In this document: piece by piece, positions 320 through 64,000 of the stretch
Layout: each line of letters begins with the position of its first letter
How positions within the stretch are numbered: position 1 is the first letter of the stretch
From: a virus
DNA: 64,000 nucleotides
Virus record (IMG/VR): IMGVR_UViG_3300028666_000023
Coordinates: 129,845-193,844 of that record
Strand: one strand, 5' to 3'
Translations under genes and position numbers: made by a program
Notes under the pieces: model-generated
The model's database searches: none
What the model was told of the DNA's origin: nothing
The model's input: the letters and a program-made list of their open reading frames with translations, nothing else

Positions 320-679
320 TCATCTGTACAGCGCGTTCACCTCTCGGTGCGCCTTGCGGCACGCATCACAACGGCACTTCCAACGCGGGCTGGTGTACCG
401 TGTGTTGACGCCATGAGGAGGCGCTGCTTCCTGACTCGTCTTCTCCTGATGGCAGTCGTGGCAAAGAATTTGGCACTTGGCCAGTTCCTTTGCTCTGCGT
501 TTCGGAGACCACGACCACACCTTATGATCAATCTTCGTTGCGCGATTGACGTGGTCGACCTCGAGACGATCAGAGGAACCACACTGCTTGCAGACCTTGC
601 CTCGTAAGAAGTCGGCTCGGTTCTTCGCAACCCACTCGCGCTGATACGTCCGCTGTCTTTCTGGATCTTTGTATCCCAT
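320..679 (-). CDS. HNH endonuclease (free-standing homing type)
   Basis: This is a 119 aa protein with the treble-clef HNH pattern: CKQCG near residue 30, DHVN about 13 residues later (D-H of the first motif), and CHDCH near residue 75. A second C-x-C-x-x-C cluster lies near the C-terminus. The family nicks or cuts DNA and spreads by homing. The ATG at 679-677 shares its A with the last base of the encoded CCA of the tmRNA, so the ORF begins exactly where the tmRNA ends. No Shine-Dalgarno is visible. An in-frame extension upstream to 793 exists but would run antisense-free through the tmRNA itself and is rejected. Confidence 0.85.
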   Translation of the reverse strand: MGYKDPERQRTYQREWVAKNRADFLRGKVCKQCGSSDRLEVDHVNRATKIDHKVWSWSPKRRAKELAKCQILCHDCHQEKTSQEAAPPHGVNTRYTSPRWKCRCDACRKAHREVNALYR

Positions 680-1023
680 GGTGGACCCGGCGGGTACTGC
701 CCCCGCGTCCGACAAGTGCCCAACAACATCCTCTGTCACGTGCGTAGTCGCTGTATCCCCAGCGACTGAGTCCCGTCGATTCGGCAACGGCACCTACTCT
801 TCTTCGATTCCTCACTGCTGATGGCGAAGTACATCAGTCAGCCAGCTCTGTGGGTTGGCACCGGCTTCGCTACTAGAGCACCTTGCTAGCCGATGGCTCA
901 GGCCGCTTGCGCGACGAGGGCGGTTGCGTTGTCGTTCGCAACTGACGTTGCCCGTTTGAATGGACCGGGCGCCACTGCACGCAGATGTCGTCTTCTTCTA
1001 GCCGTCGAATCTATTTCGGGCCC
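679..1023 (-). ncRNA. ssrA: tmRNA (transfer-messenger RNA), one-piece
   Basis: The minus strand shows every part of a tmRNA. The acceptor stem is GGGCCCG (1023-1017) pairing with CGGGTCC (689-683), 7 bp with one G-U, followed by A and an encoded CCA (681-679). The conserved GATTCGACGG block is at 1011-1002. A tag reading frame (939-898) starts at resume codon GCG after CAGTT and reads ANDNATALVAQAA then TGA, matching the AND-x-A...AA form of ssrA tags. The 3' part has GAGGATGT and CGGACGCGGG as in E. coli tmRNA. P2 pairing (CGTGC with GCACG, TCTG with CAGA) is present. The T arm is GCGGG/CCCGC with loop GGCAGTA, which departs from the usual TTCRANY. It rescues stalled ribosomes with SmpB; no smpB is seen here. 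It starts 5 nt after the stop of the 1029-1202 gene, so it is probably co-transcribed and then processed. Confidence 0.93.
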
Positions 1024-1028
1024 TTACT

Positions 1029-1202
1029 TCAAACCACTCGTGGTTCTATCTTCTTCCTCCTCTTGTCACAAGGACAACCGTTGTTCTCCTTTCTGTTGAT
1101 GCCGCACTCCTCGCAGAACGGTCCGTTGGGGAGCTGTCCGTGGCAATCGCAGTGGAAGTCCTCCGCGCCACACTGGGAACAGTAGAGCGGCTCGTCGCTC
1201 AC
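1029..1202 (-). CDS. Small zinc-ribbon protein
   Basis: This 57 aa protein starts at a GTG that overlaps the upstream stop as GTGA. It contains CSQC (residues 8-11), HCDC, CEEC and CPC, six or more cysteines in 40 residues, so it is a likely metal-binding ribbon, and it ends in a basic tail. The longer ATG reading from 1394 would overlap the neighbour almost completely and has shadow-like composition. Function is unknown. It lies directly in front of the tmRNA. Confidence 0.7.
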   Translation of the reverse strand: MSDEPLYCSQCGAEDFHCDCHGQLPNGPFCEECGINRKENNGCPCDKRRKKIEPRVV

Positions 1203-1486
1203 TTGCGCACCCGGCGCCGGCCCTTCATGTTGCCGAGCGCGAGGAGGAACATCTTCGCGACGAACTGGCAGTGCCGCTTGCCTTCTTTGCGGTCGTCGGT
1301 TTCCGCCAGGGTGAAGTACTGGACGCCGACACGGAAGAAGGTCTTGTACGTCACGCGACGACCCCACTTGAAGGTCTCCACGTAGACGGCCCACGTCTTC
1401 TGTTTCTTCTGCACCTGCTTGGCCGCGCGCGTGGCACTCGCAAGCCGTTCGAGCTCATGTTCGATCGGCGATGTGACCTTCTTCAT
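1199..1486 (-). CDS. Unknown small basic protein
   Basis: The 95 aa product begins with a charged helix (residues 1-30, KKVTSPIEHELERLASAT) and continues with a basic, aromatic segment rich in K, F and V. No family is recognised. Its ATG overlaps the stop of the sigma factor gene and its own stop overlaps the next start, so translation is probably coupled. Confidence 0.65.
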   Translation of the reverse strand: MKKVTSPIEHELERLASATRAAKQVQKKQKTWAVYVETFKWGRRVTYKTFFRVGVQYFTLAETDDRKEGKRHCQFVAKMFLLALGNMKGRRRVRK

Positions 1487-2310
1487 CAGTCTTCTTCTTC
1501 GTGGTCGTACCCCATGAACCTCTTCAGAGTGCCGAGCATCTGCGTCTTCATGTGGGAGATCTGTTGATCGGTCTTCTTCATCTTCTTTGCGAGCAGGCCC
1601 GTCGATGTGATCTGGGGATGGTCGTTCGTTCCGAAGACGTGGTTGAAGAGCGTGTGCATCTCGGGCTTCTGGGGGAAGAGATCGTGCAGCGACTTCGACG
1701 CCACAGCGATCTGCTCGTCCTCGAAGCTCGGGAAGTGGTCGTCCATCCCCTCGAGCGAGCTCGCCGGAACGTCACGACGTTGTGCCTTCAACACGGTGTC
1801 GATTCGCTTGGCAGAGATGTTCTGGAACTCTTGTTCCCCGCTCGACTGCAGATGTGACGCGATCTCCGTGCTCGTCGGCTCGCGCCCGTACTGCTCGGTG
1901 AGCTCCTCCTTCGCCACGTTGATGGGCGTGATGAGCGCAGCCTGGCCCGCGGGGATGTAGGCCATGTTCTGGTTCTTGAGGTTGTACCGCTGCGCCTTGC
2001 GGAGGCGGTAGTTCACGTGCGTGTTGAGAGACGCGCCCTTGTTCGGGTCGTACGTCTCGAGCGCGTTGATGAAGTGCTTCTGGAGCTCTCCCTTGAATGC
2101 GCTCTCCGGCGCCGCGTGCGGCGCGCGGTAGTGCCGCATGCGCATCTGCATGAGCGGCTCGTACGCTTTGAGCAGGGGCTCGAGGTGCTCGGGCTTGCGC
2201 GTCTTGTACCAGCGCTTCCAGAGATCGAGCTCCTGCTCCTTTCGGTCAGCCTTCGCGGCTTCCTTCGCTTGGAGGTGAACCTCCAACGGATTCGGTTTGC
2301 GCGCTGCCAT
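1486..2310 (-). CDS. Sigma-70-like RNA polymerase sigma factor
   Basis: The 274 aa protein has a region-2-like stretch (FINALETYDPNKGASLNTHV, then LRKAQRYNL), a region-3-like stretch ending YGREPTSTEIASHL, which is the classical REPT-x-x-EIA signature, and a C-terminal helix-turn-helix segment (KMKKTDQQISHMKTQM) at the place of region 4. It would direct host RNA polymerase to phage promoters. The start at 2310 (MAARKPN) is chosen because the ORF upstream of it is arginine/serine-rich shadow and overlaps the neighbour. Its first 65 nt overlap the end of the 2246-2731 gene. It lacks an obvious region 1.1. It is a candidate reader of the repeated GGGATAAGA motif at 17.6-20.9 kb. Confidence 0.8.
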   Translation of the reverse strand: MAARKPNPLEVHLQAKEAAKADRKEQELDLWKRWYKTRKPEHLEPLLKAYEPLMQMRMRHYRAPHAAPESAFKGELQKHFINALETYDPNKGASLNTHVNYRLRKAQRYNLKNQNMAYIPAGQAALITPINVAKEELTEQYGREPTSTEIASHLQSSGEQEFQNISAKRIDTVLKAQRRDVPASSLEGMDDHFPSFEDEQIAVASKSLHDLFPQKPEMHTLFNHVFGTNDHPQITSTGLLAKKMKKTDQQISHMKTQMLGTLKRFMGYDHEEED

Positions 2311-4426: not shown

Positions 4427-4737
4427 TCGGAGGTCTTCCTGGTAGCCCAACCGACAAACTGCACGTAGTCGTGGAAAGTACAACCGGTGCCAGGGCACAC
4501 GTAGCTCGGTGAGAGCGTGCCGTCGGGCGAAACCGAATGGATCTTCCTGGAGATGCGGCACGTGTGCCCGAGGGGGCACGTCGAGAAGGCCAAGTCTTCT
4601 CCGCAGACGCGCGCCCAGCGCTCGTCCCCGGTCTTGGCGAGGACCTCTTCATACGTCGGCGCGTAGTCCCACGTCTTCGGTGTCGGCAGCACCCCATGGT
4701 CGGGGATGCGCTGGTCGCCGCGCGTGAACTCGATCAC
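4420..4737 (-). CDS. Unknown protein with Cys pairs
   Basis: The 105 aa product has four cysteines in its second half (STCPLGHTCRI ... YVCPGTGCTF), spaced as C-x5-C and C-x4-C, so it may bind zinc. The ATG overlaps the stop of the upstream gene as ATGA. No family is recognised. Confidence 0.65.
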   Translation of the reverse strand: MIEFTRGDQRIPDHGVLPTPKTWDYAPTYEEVLAKTGDERWARVCGEDLAFSTCPLGHTCRISRKIHSVSPDGTLSPSYVCPGTGCTFHDYVQFVGWATRKTSEE

Positions 4738-5684
4738 GTCAGGTCTTGCGGCGCGCGCCCACCGATGCTGCCCTTGAACGCACCGGCGATGCCCGAGCCG
4801 AAGTGCGGGCCCTTGGGCTTCGCAATCTGCGCGATCGACGGCCCCGGTCCAGAGAGCTTCGGTGCACCGACAGACTTCGCTGCCGAGGGTGCACCGCCGA
4901 GCGTCGGGCTCACGCCCATGATGCCGCCCGCGGCGCCCATCTTCTCACGCAGCGTCGCGACGAACTTCGCCATCTCCTCGACGGGCATCGAGTACTTCGA
5001 CTTCTTGAAGTCGCTCTGGTTGTACGTGACGTAGTCCGGCAGCATGTCGCCGTCCTTCTCCTTGGACTTCTTCGCCACGGGCGCAGGGTCGAACGCGAGA
5101 TCGAGGTCGCTGCGCTTCTGGATGGGGCTCTGTAGGTCCGGAGCTGCGAACGAGGGGATGTCGCTCGCCATCATGAAGTTCCCGCGCGTGGGCGCGCCGG
5201 CCGCTTGCTTGCGCTTCTGCACCACCGACTGGAGGTTCGGCGCAAGGAACCCGGGCGCGGAGCTCGCCTGCGAAGGGATGCTCGGGTTGAGGGGGTAGGA
5301 GTACTGGCTCGTCGTGAACGCGTGCTTCGCGATCGGCGCGACCTTGTCGATGAGCTTCTCGAGCCCGCGCTTGCCCGCGAGGTACGCCGGCGTGAGACCG
5401 GGAATCGGCACCCCCTGCATCGGGATGATCTCCGGGTTCTTGATGCCCACGGAGGCCACGCTCTTCAGCGCACCGGCGATGCGCGGCGTGAACGTCTTGT
5501 CGGCCGCGCGATCGACCGCCGCCTGCGCGGGGCCCTGCAGCTTGCCGAACGCGTTCTCGACTCCGTGCTGAAGACCCGCGAGCTCGTCGGGCGAACGCTT
5601 GCGCATCAGCAGCCGCGGCGTGTTGGGCACGTCAGTGGCGCCGAGGCGCACGAGCCGTTCGATGAGCGCGTCCTTCTCCATCAC
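4734..5684 (-). CDS. Putative virion-associated protein
   Basis: The 316 aa product starts MMEKDALIERLVRLGATD and has a short basic N-terminal block (PRLLMRKRSPDELAGLQ), then proline/alanine/serine-rich low-complexity sequence with glycine-rich C-terminus. Composition and neighbours (a run of similar proteins up to 8.7 kb after the baseplate genes) suggest a virion or injected protein. No domain is recognised. Confidence 0.6.
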   Translation of the reverse strand: MMEKDALIERLVRLGATDVPNTPRLLMRKRSPDELAGLQHGVENAFGKLQGPAQAAVDRAADKTFTPRIAGALKSVASVGIKNPEIIPMQGVPIPGLTPAYLAGKRGLEKLIDKVAPIAKHAFTTSQYSYPLNPSIPSQASSAPGFLAPNLQSVVQKRKQAAGAPTRGNFMMASDIPSFAAPDLQSPIQKRSDLDLAFDPAPVAKKSKEKDGDMLPDYVTYNQSDFKKSKYSMPVEEMAKFVATLREKMGAAGGIMGVSPTLGGAPSAAKSVGAPKLSGPGPSIAQIAKPKGPHFGSGIAGAFKGSIGGRAPQDLT

Positions 5685-6313
5685 TTCTTCTTTTTCATGG
5701 CGGCGTCATGCTCGCCCTCGCGCTTGCCCACGTGATAGAGCGCCGCGCCGGAGGCGATGCCGCCCACGCCGCGCGCGATCTCGCGCGTGTCTCCATGCGC
5801 GACGCCCGACCCTGCCTCAATCGCCGGGCCGATGCGGTGCTTCAGAAAACCGTGCACGCCCTGAAGGCCATGCTCGAGTGCGCTCCGCGCCACATCTTTC
5901 GCATCCGCGCCCTTGCTCAAACCGGAGGACATCGGGGAGTCGGTCATGGCGCCGGGGGACGGGGCGTACTCGCCGACGTGCTCCTGGTTCATGAACTTCT
6001 TGAGCTTGCCATACTCGGCCTTGCGATCGAGCTGCCGCGCGACGAGCGGGATGGCACCCATTCCGATAGCGCCGCCGACCGCCCCCGCGAGCGCGCCGCG
6101 CCGCGTGGGGAGTGCGCCATGCTCGAGGGCGTTGCCGAGGAGCCTGGTCCCAGCGCCCGCGGCAGCACCGAGCGCGCCGTAGCGACCGACCTGCCCGAGC
6201 GTCGGCTTGCTCTGGTCGATCGCATCGAGCTTCTCGAGGGAGCGGTGGGCCTCCTCAGCGCTGACCGCGCCAAGCTTCTCGAGCTCGTCGAAGAACGCGT
6301 CGATCGGCAGCAT
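5681..6313 (-). CDS. Putative virion protein with N-terminal DEL-x-KL tag and glycine zippers
   Basis: The 210 aa product begins MLPIDAFFDELEKLG, one of four neighbouring proteins with this N-terminal signature. Residues 40-90 are glycine/alanine rich (GALGAAAGAGTRLLG, GALAGAVGGAIGMGAIP), a glycine-zipper pattern typical of proteins that insert into or cross membranes. Ends in a lysine run. The ATG shares base 6313 with the previous stop region. An injected or tail-tip role is an inference. Confidence 0.6.
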   Translation of the reverse strand: MLPIDAFFDELEKLGAVSAEEAHRSLEKLDAIDQSKPTLGQVGRYGALGAAAGAGTRLLGNALEHGALPTRRGALAGAVGGAIGMGAIPLVARQLDRKAEYGKLKKFMNQEHVGEYAPSPGAMTDSPMSSGLSKGADAKDVARSALEHGLQGVHGFLKHRIGPAIEAGSGVAHGDTREIARGVGGIASGAALYHVGKREGEHDAAMKKKK

Positions 6314-6876
6314 CAGTGGCCTCCGGCGAGACCGCCGAGCGCGGGGGCCGCGAGCACACCGAGACCCGCGATCTCCGACAGCGGCTTGGCCGCGTGCGGC
6401 AGCACCTGACGCTTCTTCACGCCCTCGGAGCTGTAGTCGCCGTGGAGGCCCGCGCGCAGATGCGCCTGCGCCTCGTCGAGGCTCGGGGCCGCGAGGATGC
6501 CGAGCCCGGCGAGCTCCGCCTTGTGCGCGCCCGCGCCTTGCGCGAGCGGCGCGAGGGACTTCATGAGCCCACCGACGCCGGCCTCCTTGATCGCCTCAGC
6601 GAAGGCTGCCTTGTCGAGCATGTCGGGGTACTTCTGTTTGATCTTCGCGCGCACGGCGGCGAGGTCGGCCGAGTCGTGGTGCATCTTCGCGAAGCCGAGC
6701 GCGGAGCGCGCGTGCTGGCGATCGGGGATGGGGTACGCCTCCTCACCCGTGTTCGACTTCTTCGCCTTCACCGCGAAGTCCTTGCCGGGGAGCTTGTCGC
6801 GCGCGCTCTCGGTGAGCTCGCCCGCGATCTTGGAGAGCTCGTCGCGGCAGGACTGGATGCTGGTCAAATCGAACAT
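6313..6876 (-). CDS. Putative virion protein with DEL-x-KIA tag
   Basis: The 187 aa product starts MFDLTSIQSCRDELSKIAG. Residues 35-85 (YPIPDRQHARSALGFAKMHH ... AKIKQKYPDML) resemble a small recurrent phage domain in which a PIPD-x-x-HAR-x-AL motif is followed by a VRAKI-x-x-KYP motif. The C-terminus repeats AGLGILAAPSLDEAQAHL and AGLGVLAAPALGG, an internal duplication. The start at 6876 has GAGGA upstream; the ATG at 6906 overlaps the preceding gene. Confidence 0.6.
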   Translation of the reverse strand: MFDLTSIQSCRDELSKIAGELTESARDKLPGKDFAVKAKKSNTGEEAYPIPDRQHARSALGFAKMHHDSADLAAVRAKIKQKYPDMLDKAAFAEAIKEAGVGGLMKSLAPLAQGAGAHKAELAGLGILAAPSLDEAQAHLRAGLHGDYSSEGVKKRQVLPHAAKPLSEIAGLGVLAAPALGGLAGGH

Positions 6877-6883
6877 GACTTCC

Positions 6884-8122
6884 TCACCTGAAGAACTTGC
6901 CGACACGTGCGAGCATACCAGGAGCCTTGGCCGCGACCGAGTGTTCTGCGGATTGCAGTGCTCCGCCGACGGCGCCGCCGAGTGAGGGGGCCTTCTTCAT
7001 CAAGTTGAAAGGCGCCGCGGTCCCCATGGACTGAACGGTGTGCGCGGTAGTTCCAGACGCCGCGAGCGCAGGTCGAGCAGCGGGCAGCGCTGCACGTTGG
7101 GGGACAGCCGTTCGAACGTCGTCTACGCCACCCCCGCCGAGATGTTGTGCCGGTGGTGCCGTGGTCGGCGCGGCCTTCTGGATGTTCATCTGCGGGTTGA
7201 ACACCTCCTTGCGGAGAGCTCCGACGTTCGCGTTCTGGCCGGGGTCGGCGCCGAACCGGCTGTCGCCCTTCGGTGCGTACGTGTGCAGCGAATCCAGCGC
7301 GTGGTTCGCCTGCCCTTCCGTGTGCGGCAAGAAGTCGAGCACCTTCGGACCTTGGGGGGAGTTCACGACGTTCCCCCAGTTGGTGCCGAGACTCCCTGAG
7401 GAGTTTCGGATCTTGGTGGTGTCCATCATGTGGTGGCCCTGCGCCTCCATCGGATTGACCACCGTCTCGTTGACCTTGTTGACCGCGCCCATGTACTGGT
7501 CGCGAGGGTTGCTGTAGACCGCGCGCCCGTTGGCCTCGGCCTTCTGGCCGCGCAGGTCGGAGATGCCGGGCACGTACTCGTGGAAGGACGTCGAGCGTTG
7601 TAGTCCCCCTGCACCATGTGTCTCGTGACCGTACATCGCAGGCACCATGCTCTTCGCCTCGGGCGAGAGAGAGCGCGCTTGGTCGGTCATCTGCTGTTTG
7701 TGCTCGAGGAGCTTCGGCGTGAACTCCCCCTGAGACACGGGGCTGTCGGGTTTGTACAACTTGCGCGCGACGTAGCCACTCTGGTTCACCTCACCCGTCG
7801 AGGGCACTGCCTTGCGTCCCATCATCAGGTCGACGCCGGCTTCCGCTCCACCAGGAGAGATGTCCTTCAGCTGACGCGGCTTGAGTCCGAGGTCGCCGTA
7901 GCCCTTGGCGATCTGGTCGGCTCCTGCTTGGTTGCCCGCTGCATTCGCCGCCTGCCACTCCTTCACCGCGCGCGTCGCTGCGATCTTCGACCCAGGCGCC
8001 ATCTTGATGGTCGCCATGCGCGGCGCGAGCGTCGTCAGCGCGTTGTTCGGACGGAGCTCCCCGGGTGTGGCGATCTTCGCGAGCTCGCTCTCGAAGGCGC
8101 TCTTGATGCTGTCGAGGTTCAT
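6884..8122 (-). CDS. Putative virion protein with ESELAKIA tag
   Basis: The 412 aa product begins MNLDSIKSAFESELAKIATP. The middle (residues 100-260) holds a region around SPEAKSMVPAMYGHETHG, HEYVPGISDLRGQKAEANG and HHMMDTTKIRNSSGS that looks like a folded domain; the order of conserved H, D and N residues recalls a kinase-like or toxin-like fold (GNVVNSPQGPKVLDFLPH), but I cannot name the family. The C-terminus is alanine/proline rich. It may be an injected effector. Confidence 0.6.
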   Translation of the reverse strand: MNLDSIKSAFESELAKIATPGELRPNNALTTLAPRMATIKMAPGSKIAATRAVKEWQAANAAGNQAGADQIAKGYGDLGLKPRQLKDISPGGAEAGVDLMMGRKAVPSTGEVNQSGYVARKLYKPDSPVSQGEFTPKLLEHKQQMTDQARSLSPEAKSMVPAMYGHETHGAGGLQRSTSFHEYVPGISDLRGQKAEANGRAVYSNPRDQYMGAVNKVNETVVNPMEAQGHHMMDTTKIRNSSGSLGTNWGNVVNSPQGPKVLDFLPHTEGQANHALDSLHTYAPKGDSRFGADPGQNANVGALRKEVFNPQMNIQKAAPTTAPPAQHLGGGGVDDVRTAVPQRAALPAARPALAASGTTAHTVQSMGTAAPFNLMKKAPSLGGAVGGALQSAEHSVAAKAPGMLARVGKFFR

Positions 8123-8634
8123 GCGTGCCCGCTCGGGTGGTTCATGGCACCGATGTCGCTCGAGTGTTGCCCGAGACCGGTGACCGTCGTTGCGTTCTCT
8201 CGCTGGTCGTATCGATCGACGGTGTTCACGTCGTCCAGGCTCGGGACGTCACCCTTCTTGCGTGGCTTTTTTGCTTCCGCAAACCCAGGTGTCTCACCGC
8301 CAGGGATGGGCCCGGGTCCCTCCGCGTAGACGCTGCCCTGCAGGGAACCATACTTCTGCTCGAGGGGAATCATCTCCCCCCGCGTGGGCCCGTCCCCCGA
8401 ATGCTTCTTCGCTTTGGCGGCGCCGGGGTCGTCCACGCTGCCCGCCGCGGTGTCCTGGGGGTTTCCCTGAGAATCCGCCCCCTTGTAGAGCTCGCCGCGC
8501 TTGTCCTTGTCCAACAGCTTGTCCACTGAAATGGGACGGCGCCCCTCCCGCGACTTCGTAATATCCATGTGGCTCTCCGCGAAGGCGATCTTCGAAAGCT
8601 CGTCGTAGAACGCGGAGAGAACTTTGCCGTCCAC
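8119..8634 (-). CDS. Putative virion protein with YDELSKIA tag
   Basis: From a GTG at 8634 the 171 aa product begins (M)DGKVLSAFYDELSKIAF, which puts the shared tag at the same distance from the N-terminus as in the three following genes. The ATG at 8685, with AGGAG 7 nt upstream, is an alternative and would overlap the divergent 8678 start. The rest is polar and proline/glycine rich (LLDKDKRGELYKGADSQGN). Function unknown. Confidence 0.55.
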   Translation of the reverse strand: MDGKVLSAFYDELSKIAFAESHMDITKSREGRRPISVDKLLDKDKRGELYKGADSQGNPQDTAAGSVDDPGAAKAKKHSGDGPTRGEMIPLEQKYGSLQGSVYAEGPGPIPGGETPGFAEAKKPRKKGDVPSLDDVNTVDRYDQRENATTVTGLGQHSSDIGAMNHPSGHA

Positions 8635-8677
8635 GACTGGAGTGTACCGCGGGCACGGAACGTGCGGAAGAGCGGAC

Positions 8678-8881
8678 ATGCTCATCGTCGGACTCCTCGC
8701 CCTCATCATCTGCGTCGTCGGTCTGATCTTCTATCTCGCGTTCAATGCGATGTCGCGCGCGGCGTGGGTAGAAGTCTTCCGCATCATGTTCGCGATGGGG
8801 CTGCTCGCCTTTCTCATCGGCTCAGGGATGCAGAGCTGTTCCGTCGGAACAACCGGCGCGACCACCACAATCCACCACTAG
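8678..8881 (+). CDS. Small membrane protein
   Basis: This 67 aa protein is the only plus-strand gene in its region. It has two strongly hydrophobic segments (residues 2-22, LIVGLLALIICVVGLIFYLA, and residues 33-48, FRIMFAMGLLAFLIG). It ends with a short polar tail containing Cys. Its stop overlaps the stop of the convergent 8878-11955 gene by 4 nt. Holin-like size and topology are possible, but there is no lysis gene next to it, so I do not assign a function. Confidence 0.65.
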   Translation: MLIVGLLALIICVVGLIFYLAFNAMSRAAWVEVFRIMFAMGLLAFLIGSGMQSCSVGTTGATTTIHH

Positions 8882-62876: not shown

Positions 62877-64000
62877 TCAGCCCTGGTCGACGGGCCCGCG
62901 GTAGAACGAACGGATCGCGCCCTGGCCGTCGACCTCTTTGAAGGGGGCAACGACATCCGGGCGCGGGATGAGGAGCATCGAGGCGAGGAAGCAGTAGAGC
63001 ACCGAGTGGAACGTGTCGTCGGGGCGATCGAGCTTGTGGTCGTACTGCAGCGTGCGGAGCTTGTTGTTGTACTCGCTGTAGATGTTGAGCATGTCGTTCG
63101 CGAACGGGTCCTCGAACTCTTCCCAGTTCGGGAACTCGATCTGCCGTCGCTTGATGGCGTTGAACACGTCGCTCATCACTTCGGTCCGCACGATCTGCCA
63201 TCGGCGGAAGTTCGGATTCCAGAAGACCTTCCGCTTGCCCTTCGGCAAGTACTGGTACTTGTGGACGCGCTTCGGTCCGAACTTGCGCGTGAGGCGATCG
63301 TTCGGGTAGTGGCCGCCGCCGTAGTCCGCTCCGATGAGGCGGGTGTTGAAGTACGAGATGAGCTCGATGATGCGCGCGAGCTGGATTTCGGGATCGACCT
63401 CTTCGCCTTGGAAGCGGTGGACGTAGAAGATGCGGAACTTCGAGTTCACGTACGTACCGAAGGAGATGACCGTGTACGTGTTCTCGCCCGTGCCCCAGTC
63501 GATGCCGCAGAAGACCGGGCTGCCCGCGCCGATGGCCTTGTACTTGGCGAGCTCCTCGATGCTCATGTGCACATCGACGTTGCTGCACGCGCGGACCTGC
63601 GCGCGCGTGAGCGGGCGGAGGCCTGAGTCGTACGAGATGCCGAGCACCTCGTTGTAGAAGCGCTGGCGGTCGTAGCGGCCGTAGTCGAGCATGATCTCGT
63701 CCCACGACCGCCAGGGCACCATCAACTGCGGGATGCGGTAGCTCTCGAAGATGCCGTCCTTCACGAACATCGCCCACTGCGAGTCCGGGTGCATCGGGTT
63801 GAGGAGCTTGCCGCAACGCTCGCAGCTCAGGCCGCGCTTCTGGATGTTCTTCTCCCCGAGGACGTTCCAGTAGCGACCGGCGCCGGCGGAGCTGCCGCAG
63901 CGATCGCACGGCACCATCCACTCGCCCATCGTCGACATCGGTTTGCCGCGCGCGGTGCCCGACCAGTAGTACTCGAGGGTGTTGTCGAGACTCTTGGGCA
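62877..64000 (-). CDS. Terminase large subunit, C-terminal part (cut by window edge)
   Basis: The frame stays open from the window end through the internal ATG at 63938 to the stop at 62877, so the start lies outside. SLDNTLEYYWSGTARG at the edge is the end of the ATPase part. CDRC ... CERC near 63.9 kb forms the zinc knuckle found in many large-phage terminases. The RNase H-like nuclease shows VFCGIDWGTGENTYTVISFG (first acidic residue), RLIGADYGGGHYPND (second) and RPDDTFHSVLYCFLASMLLI (third). It cuts concatemers and drives packaging. Confidence 0.85.
   Translation of the reverse strand, partial: PKSLDNTLEYYWSGTARGKPMSTMGEWMVPCDRCGSSAGAGRYWNVLGEKNIQKRGLSCERCGKLLNPMHPDSQWAMFVKDGIFESYRIPQLMVPWRSWDEIMLDYGRYDRQRFYNEVLGISYDSGLRPLTRAQVRACSNVDVHMSIEELAKYKAIGAGSPVFCGIDWGTGENTYTVISFGTYVNSKFRIFYVHRFQGEEVDPEIQLARIIELISYFNTRLIGADYGGGHYPNDRLTRKFGPKRVHKYQYLPKGKRKVFWNPNFRRWQIVRTEVMSDVFNAIKRRQIEFPNWEEFEDPFANDMLNIYSEYNNKLRTLQYDHKLDRPDDTFHSVLYCFLASMLLIPRPDVVAPFKEVDGQGAIRSFYRGPVDQG

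What the first reader, a model, noticed from the sequence alone, without database searches (positions are those of the whole stretch)
679..1023. A complete phage-encoded tmRNA with an odd tag and T-loop
The minus strand has an acceptor stem, GATTCGACGG block, tag frame, P2 pairing, GAGGATGT and T arm in the right order over 345 nt. The deduced tag (ANDNATALVAQAA) keeps the AND- start and -AA end but has VAQAA where most tags end in LAA, which could change how the tagged proteins are handled by ClpXP. The T-loop GGCAGTA lacks the usual TTC. The gene is embedded in a protein operon 5 nt after a stop codon rather than standing alone.
Basis: partly seen in the sequence, partly recalled or inferred. 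Interest (0 to 1): 0.85.

Follow-up and report, generated by a model that had tools for sequence, protein, structure and literature searches.

The report
Phage tmRNA gene beside HNH endonuclease
A large bacterial virus carries a complete copy of the RNA that bacteria use to rescue stuck ribosomes; its odd-looking parts turn out to be known or explainable variants, and it sits flush against a probable selfish DNA-cutting gene that may have brought it in.

Summary
ARAGORN misses it. Across seven large-phage tmRNAs, 25 of 35 stem pairs change on both sides; none of 500 shuffles reaches this. The two oddities are milder than claimed. The GGCAGTA T-loop is usual in alphaproteobacterial-type permuted tmRNAs, recurs in one-piece tmRNAs of Omnitrophota/Elusimicrobia MAGs and of other phages, and goes with a matching D-loop change, so the elbow looks like an alternative form, not a defect. 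The -QAA tag end is uncommon but also occurs in phage Phass-1 and in one bacterial genome (-LVAQAA). Terminase-related phages lack both genes where checked. Best reading: a working phage tmRNA that uses host SmpB, probably acquired with a tRNA-locus-type homing endonuclease. New member of a known kind; the tmRNA-HNH junction is the freshest part.

The parts
679..1023 (-). one-piece tmRNA gene
   Evidence: Rfam RF00023 89.6 bits, E=1.8e-33, model 1-374; covariation
1017..1023 (-). acceptor stem 5' strand GGGCCCG, with the G3-U pair
   Evidence: pairs 7/7 with 683-689
683..689 (-). acceptor stem 3' strand CGGGTCC, followed by ACCA at 679-682
977..992 (-). P2 5' strand (GACGACATC at 984-992, GCGTGC at 977-982)
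   Evidence: all 15 pairs standard here; P2 covaries across 7 phage tmRNAs
722..743 (-). P2 3' strand (GCACGT at 738-743, GATGTTGTT at 722-730)
950..975 (-). possible pseudoknot PK1 (GTGG/CCAT and GCCCG/CGGGC)
   Evidence: pairs form in this sequence; not supported by the alignment as made
898..939 (-). tag reading frame ANDNATALVAQAA and TGA stop; resume codon GCG at 937-939
   Evidence: translation
902..915 (-). hairpin GTCGC-GCAA-GCGGC over the tag end; the Q codon CAA lies in its loop
   Evidence: predicted fold
859..895 (-). PK2-region stem CATCGGCT/AGCCGGTG
   Evidence: covaries across phage tmRNAs in 7 of 8 pairs, 75% of cells paired
690..706 (-). T arm GCGGG-GGCAGTA-CCCGC, loop at 695-701
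320..679 (-). HNH endonuclease, 119 aa; the A of its ATG is the last A of the tmRNA
   Evidence: phrog_4234 E=1.8e-38; Pfam HNH 18.3 bits, below its 21.4 cut-off
1029..1202 (-). 57-aa cysteine-rich ORF (GTG start), stop codon 5 nt before the tmRNA
   Evidence: translation; no family match
1199..1486 (-). 95-aa ORF of unknown function, overlaps the next ORF by 4 nt
1489..2253 (-). sigma-factor-like gene, left-hand marker of the site compared with sister phages
   Evidence: phrog_351 E=5.9e-6; Sigma70_r3 24.1 bits, just below its cut-off; relatives in G005, G006, G009, G010

Best explanation
The locus encodes a genuine one-piece tmRNA of a tailed phage (193,844-bp IMG/VR contig). Most likely it is cut out of a longer transcript, charged with alanine through the G3-U acceptor pair, bound by the host's SmpB (no smpB was found on the contig), and used during infection to free stalled ribosomes and add ANDNATALVAQAA to the unfinished proteins. 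Its T-loop is an alternative elbow that goes with a changed D-loop. The gene was probably gained in this phage, in one block with the HNH endonuclease that starts on its last base, between a sigma-like gene and its downstream neighbour. Shown by sequence: the gene, its structure, the tag frame, the HNH overlap, and absence of the tmRNA at the same site in related phages. Inferred: processing, charging, SmpB use, tagging, and homing as the route of gain.
For: Full-length Rfam hit. Intact acceptor with G3-U, CCA, T arm, P2 and tag frame. Covariation over 7 phage tmRNAs: 93.4% of cells paired, 25 of 35 pairs with double-sided changes, 0 of 500 shuffles as high. D-loop/T-loop association. Same-strand tmRNA-HNH order in Gordonia phage RobinSparkles; 13 of 16 sampled HNH homologues beside tRNA or tmRNA genes. 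Related phages with the sigma gene lack the tmRNA there.
Against: No expression or biochemical data. No smpB on the contig, which may be incomplete. The Rfam score is lower than for typical bacterial tmRNAs (120-208 bits for most hits). PK1 is not supported by the alignment as made. The contigs of relatives may be incomplete, and the HNH search in them had no positive control.
Confidence: 0.85

Rival explanations
1. A decaying, non-functional tmRNA captured from a host, with a corrupted T-loop and tag.
For: ARAGORN does not recognise it; the score is below most bacterial tmRNAs; a second, degenerate-looking tmRNA copy does exist in other phages (L150, L152).
Against: All 7 acceptor, 5 T-stem and 15 P2 pairs are intact, the tag frame is open and ends in AA, CCA is encoded, and relatives show compensatory change, meaning selection on the fold.
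Confidence: 0.06
2. The tmRNA works, but its QAA tag redirects tagged proteins away from ClpXP, for example to spare phage proteins or use another protease.
For: In E. coli, ClpX binds the C-terminal LAA of the tag (PMC3968760); the tag here has Q in place of L.
Against: An LVAQAA end also exists in a bacterial genome (L210), so it can be a normal host-type tag. The third-last residue varies among related phage tmRNAs (Q, L, M, A). The Q codon lies in a GCAA hairpin loop, so RNA structure may explain it.
Confidence: 0.08
3. An alphaproteobacterial permuted tmRNA that was put back into one-piece order, which would explain the GGC T-loop.
For: The T-loop and part of the D-loop match RF01849-type tmRNAs.
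Against: The body shares motifs and spacing with other one-piece phage tmRNAs, two of which (L158, L410) have TTC loops; GGC loops also occur in unrelated one-piece bacterial tmRNAs.
Confidence: 0.04

Closest known systems
Large-phage one-piece tmRNAs L410, L158, L150/L152, L156, L420, L423 (IMG/VR)
   Same: Standard one-piece order, CAACCCAC motif, GTGANNGA-N21-GGAC spacing, ANDN tag start, covarying P2
   Different: T-loops differ (GGCAGTA, TTC or TGCAAT) and tags end in LAA, MAA or AAA; the five checked for tRNAs with Rfam have tRNA genes nearby, whereas the one tRNA ARAGORN found on this contig is far away
Standard tmRNA, Rfam RF00023
   Same: Full-length model match, acceptor with G3-U, P2, tag, T arm
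   Different: GGC T-loop and -QAA tag end; below ARAGORN's detection
Alphaproteobacterial permuted tmRNA, RF01849
   Same: GGC-type T-loop and AG D-loop
   Different: This gene is not permuted and the 5' acceptor strand lies upstream in a single 345-nt gene
Gordonia phage RobinSparkles tmRNA-HNH pair
   Same: HNH homologue directly 3' of a tmRNA on the same strand, same MGYKDP start
   Different: There 16 nt with a GGAGG separate the two; T-loop is TTC; the tag is long and ends in LAKA
Phage T4/T6 SegB, free-standing homing endonuclease of a tRNA cluster
   Same: Endonuclease gene tied to stable-RNA genes; biases inheritance and amplifies the region (PMC2988022, PMC13096335)
   Different: SegB is GIY-YIG and linked to tRNAs; this one is HNH and linked to a tmRNA; its activity is untested

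Membership tests
tmRNA (RF00023, standard form) | Full-length covariance-model match above the gathering score | tested here: met
   89.6 bits against a 47-bit cut-off, model 1-374
tmRNA (RF00023, standard form) | Seven-pair acceptor with G3-U and a CCA end | tested here: met
tmRNA (RF00023, standard form) | Long P2 helix joining tRNA-like and mRNA-like parts | tested here: met
   15 of 15 pairs in this sequence; covariation across 7 sequences
tmRNA (RF00023, standard form) | Internal tag frame starting at a resume codon, ending at a stop, with an AA-type C terminus | tested here: met
   ANDNATALVAQAA*
tmRNA (RF00023, standard form) | Pseudoknots PK1 to PK4 | tested here: inconclusive
   Candidate stems pair in this sequence; of those, only the PK2-region stem is supported by the alignment
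tmRNA (RF00023, standard form) | Usual TTC-type T-loop | tested here: not met
   GGCAGTA; common but not defining, since accepted tmRNAs also lack it
tmRNA (RF00023, standard form) | Alanine charging, SmpB binding, tagging activity | not testable with these tools
   needs biochemistry or expression in a laboratory strain
Alphaproteobacterial permuted tmRNA (RF01849) | Permuted order, 3' tRNA-like part encoded before the coding part | tested here: not met
   standard order, single 345-nt gene
Free-standing HNH homing endonuclease (gene at 320-679) | HNH nuclease sequence family | tested here: met
   phrog_4234 E=1.8e-38; Pfam HNH below its cut-off
Free-standing HNH homing endonuclease (gene at 320-679) | Absent at the same site in related phages (empty site) | tested here: met
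   G005, G009 and G010 keep the sigma gene but have other sequence after it; no HNH hit in 11 related contigs, without positive control
Free-standing HNH homing endonuclease (gene at 320-679) | Cleaves the empty site and biases inheritance | not testable with these tools
   needs cleavage and co-infection assays

The most novel reading that the evidence does not exclude
tmRNA and HNH gene form one mobile cassette in which the tmRNA fold is also the switch: the endonuclease's start codon begins on the tmRNA's last base and the stretch just before it is the acceptor stem, so making mature tmRNA destroys or hides the endonuclease message, while homing spreads a ribosome-rescue RNA between phages.
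Probability: 0.2. Interest if true: 0.62.

Novelty: new member of a known kind. Interest (0 to 1): 0.36.

Why it matters
It adds a structurally complete tmRNA from an uncharacterised large-phage lineage that ARAGORN overlooks. It points to a D-loop/T-loop rule under which GGC T-loops are an alternative tRNA-like elbow, which is directly testable. It also suggests that tmRNA genes, like phage tRNA genes, may travel with homing endonucleases, which would help explain their patchy distribution among phages (about 2% of genomes in PMC9004378).

Tried and rejected
A protein search with the sigma-like gene in viral contigs found no relatives; relatives were later reached through the terminase. Most large proteins of the window gave no PHROG match and the 1025-aa protein no match in the phage collection, so the host could not be named. 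Host inference from the LVAQAA tag was considered: one genome (G038) of 379 searched in its phylum has it, but its tmRNA is only 48% identical to this one and has a TTC loop, so it stays a lead. A de-permuted alphaproteobacterial tmRNA was rejected because the body resembles one-piece phage tmRNAs, some with TTC loops. The folding-energy z-score alone (-2.15) was not taken as proof.

Full report
Observation. Infernal with Rfam finds one RNA in the whole window, tmRNA RF00023, at 679-1023 minus, 89.6 bits, E=1.8e-33, covering model positions 1-374. It is also the only tmRNA found on the 193,844-bp virus contig. ARAGORN reports nothing. The elements read by eye are all present and pair as expected: acceptor GGGCCCG/CGGGTCC with a G3-U pair, P2 strands GACGACATC/GATGTTGTT and GCGTGC/GCACGT, T arm GCGGG-GGCAGTA-CCCGC, an encoded CCA, and a tag frame giving ANDNATALVAQAA followed by TGA.

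More than chance. Folding energy is only mildly unusual (z=-2.15). The strong evidence is comparative. A spacing signature (CAACCCAC, then GTGANNGA-N21-GGAC) brought together six distinct further large-phage tmRNAs; five were submitted to Rfam and all match RF00023, and the sixth, L158, matches it. On the seven-sequence alignment A1, 93.4% of stem cells pair, 25 of 35 pairs change on both sides (shuffles 11.2 +/- 2.1, 0 of 500 as high), and sliding the partners by one to three columns destroys the signal. The relatives were chosen partly on acceptor pairing, and the structure tested was derived from the window sequence, but P2 pairing was not a selection criterion and P2 is the best supported helix (8 of its 9 outer pairs have double-sided changes).

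The T-loop. GGCAGTA is rare among bacterial one-piece tmRNAs: a pattern scan of 84,980 species genomes gave 13 hits, about 10 of them genuine tmRNAs, mostly Omnitrophota and Elusimicrobia MAGs plus one labelled Deltaproteobacteria. That pattern was narrow, so the count is a lower bound. In alphaproteobacterial-type permuted tmRNAs the loop is the rule: the RF01849 consensus is GGCgGUA, and about 120 viral loci fetched with GGCAGTA are almost all permuted. Replacement of the two U by two G has been noted for the Reclinomonas mitochondrial tmRNA (PMC1168896). Tabulating D-loops against T-loops, 20 of 20 one-piece GGC genes and 97 of 103 permuted GGC genes have a TAG or CAG D-loop by the script's rule (the remaining six were not matched by it), while 31 of 34 one-piece TTC genes have a GG preceded by T or C. 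This fits the known tRNA elbow contact between D-loop position 18 and T-loop position 55 (general knowledge). The sequences are related and some loci are duplicates, so the Fisher p of 5.5e-12 is only descriptive, but the exchange also happens inside the small phage group: GGC in this phage, L150 and L420, TTC in L158 and L410, and a shorter TGCAAT loop in L156 and L423. I read the loop as an alternative elbow, not a defect. Whether this association has been published I could not establish.

The tag. Our tag ends in QAA. A third-last Q also occurs in gut phage Phass-1 (L005...VRQAA, read from the sequence) and in bacterial genome G038 (ANDNAREGLVAQAA), whose last seven codons differ from ours at three of 21 bases. 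In 379 genomes of that phylum no second case was found. Tags of the related phages end in LAA, MAA or AAA. The Q codon CAA sits in the GCAA loop of a predicted hairpin, so RNA structure is one simple reason for it. Effects on ClpXP are untested; E. coli ClpX binds LAA (PMC3968760).

Surroundings. Upstream on the same strand, a 57-aa cysteine-rich ORF ends 5 nt before the tmRNA. Downstream, a 119-aa HNH endonuclease (phrog_4234, E=1.8e-38) begins with an ATG whose A is the terminal A of the tmRNA. That this is the true start is supported by the same MGYKDP start in the homologue of Gordonia phage RobinSparkles, which lies 16 nt downstream of that phage's tmRNA on the same strand. Of 16 homologous loci inspected, 13 lie within about 200 nt of a tRNA or tmRNA gene (Lukilu, Salacia, Glaske16, RobinSparkles, Alice, Myrna, PD114, Yut2, Dandelion, ET08, Braelyn, Calm, CicholasNage); Phredrick, S-RIM14 and Sf-CH1b do not. 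No background rate was computed, and the sample is dominated by mycobacteriophages.

Acquisition. Eleven IMG/VR contigs carry a terminase 47-80% identical to the one at 62880-63938. None shows a tmRNA or this HNH gene (no positive control); several are fragments. In G005, G009 and G010 the sigma-like gene is conserved. In G005 the homologue of the gene at contig 128573-129745 follows about 75 nt after it; in G009 and G010 a different stretch of about 0.5 kb lies between. In this phage the interval of about 1.6 kb holds a 95-aa ORF, the 57-aa ORF, the tmRNA and the HNH gene. The simplest reading is gain of a block in this phage, though loss in the others is not excluded. SegB, a free-standing endonuclease of T4-type tRNA clusters, drives preferred inheritance of the tRNA region (PMC2988022) and amplifies tRNA genes against a defence system (PMC13096335). 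By analogy the HNH gene may mobilise the tmRNA; this is inference.

Function. No smpB was found on the contig, so the RNA would depend on host SmpB, AlaRS, EF-Tu and RNase P. Phage tmRNAs are a known kind: 402 of 18,146 phage genomes in one survey (PMC9004378) and 79 phage entries in the tmRNA database (PMC11915505). The gene is therefore a new member of a known kind. The tmRNA/HNH overlap and the D-loop/T-loop rule are the parts worth following.

Noticed in passing
L150 (minus strand, about 8.4-9.2 kb) and L152 (about 13.1-13.9 kb): Two tmRNA-like genes in tandem about 0.47 kb apart in one phage lineage; the first has no recognisable T arm and scores below the cut-off (G018).
   Followed up: partly
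L003 (2315-2764) and L006 (2249-2695): In two Erythrobacter phages an HslV/proteasome-like peptidase gene lies about 0.4-0.5 kb downstream of a permuted tmRNA: a tagging RNA near a protease gene.
   Followed up: no
window 4734-8709, minus strand: Several neighbouring proteins carry a similar short motif near the N terminus (FFDELEKLGA, CRDELSKIAG, FESELAKIAT, FYDELSKIAF), possibly a shared targeting or packaging signal.
   Followed up: no
L005 1096-1534: Gut phage Phass-1 (code-15 clade) has an unannotated one-piece tmRNA (RF00023, 77.9 bits) with a long tag ending in VRQAA.
   Followed up: partly
L007 8822-8929: A match to Rfam Atu_At1 (Rhizobiales sRNA, 64.1 bits) directly abuts the 3' end of a tmRNA-like gene with a GGCAGTA loop.
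   Followed up: no
L002 1413-1848: Mesorhizobium phage Cp1R7A-A1 carries an unannotated permuted tmRNA (RF01849, 112.2 bits), near a gene annotated as tRNA splicing ligase.
   Followed up: no
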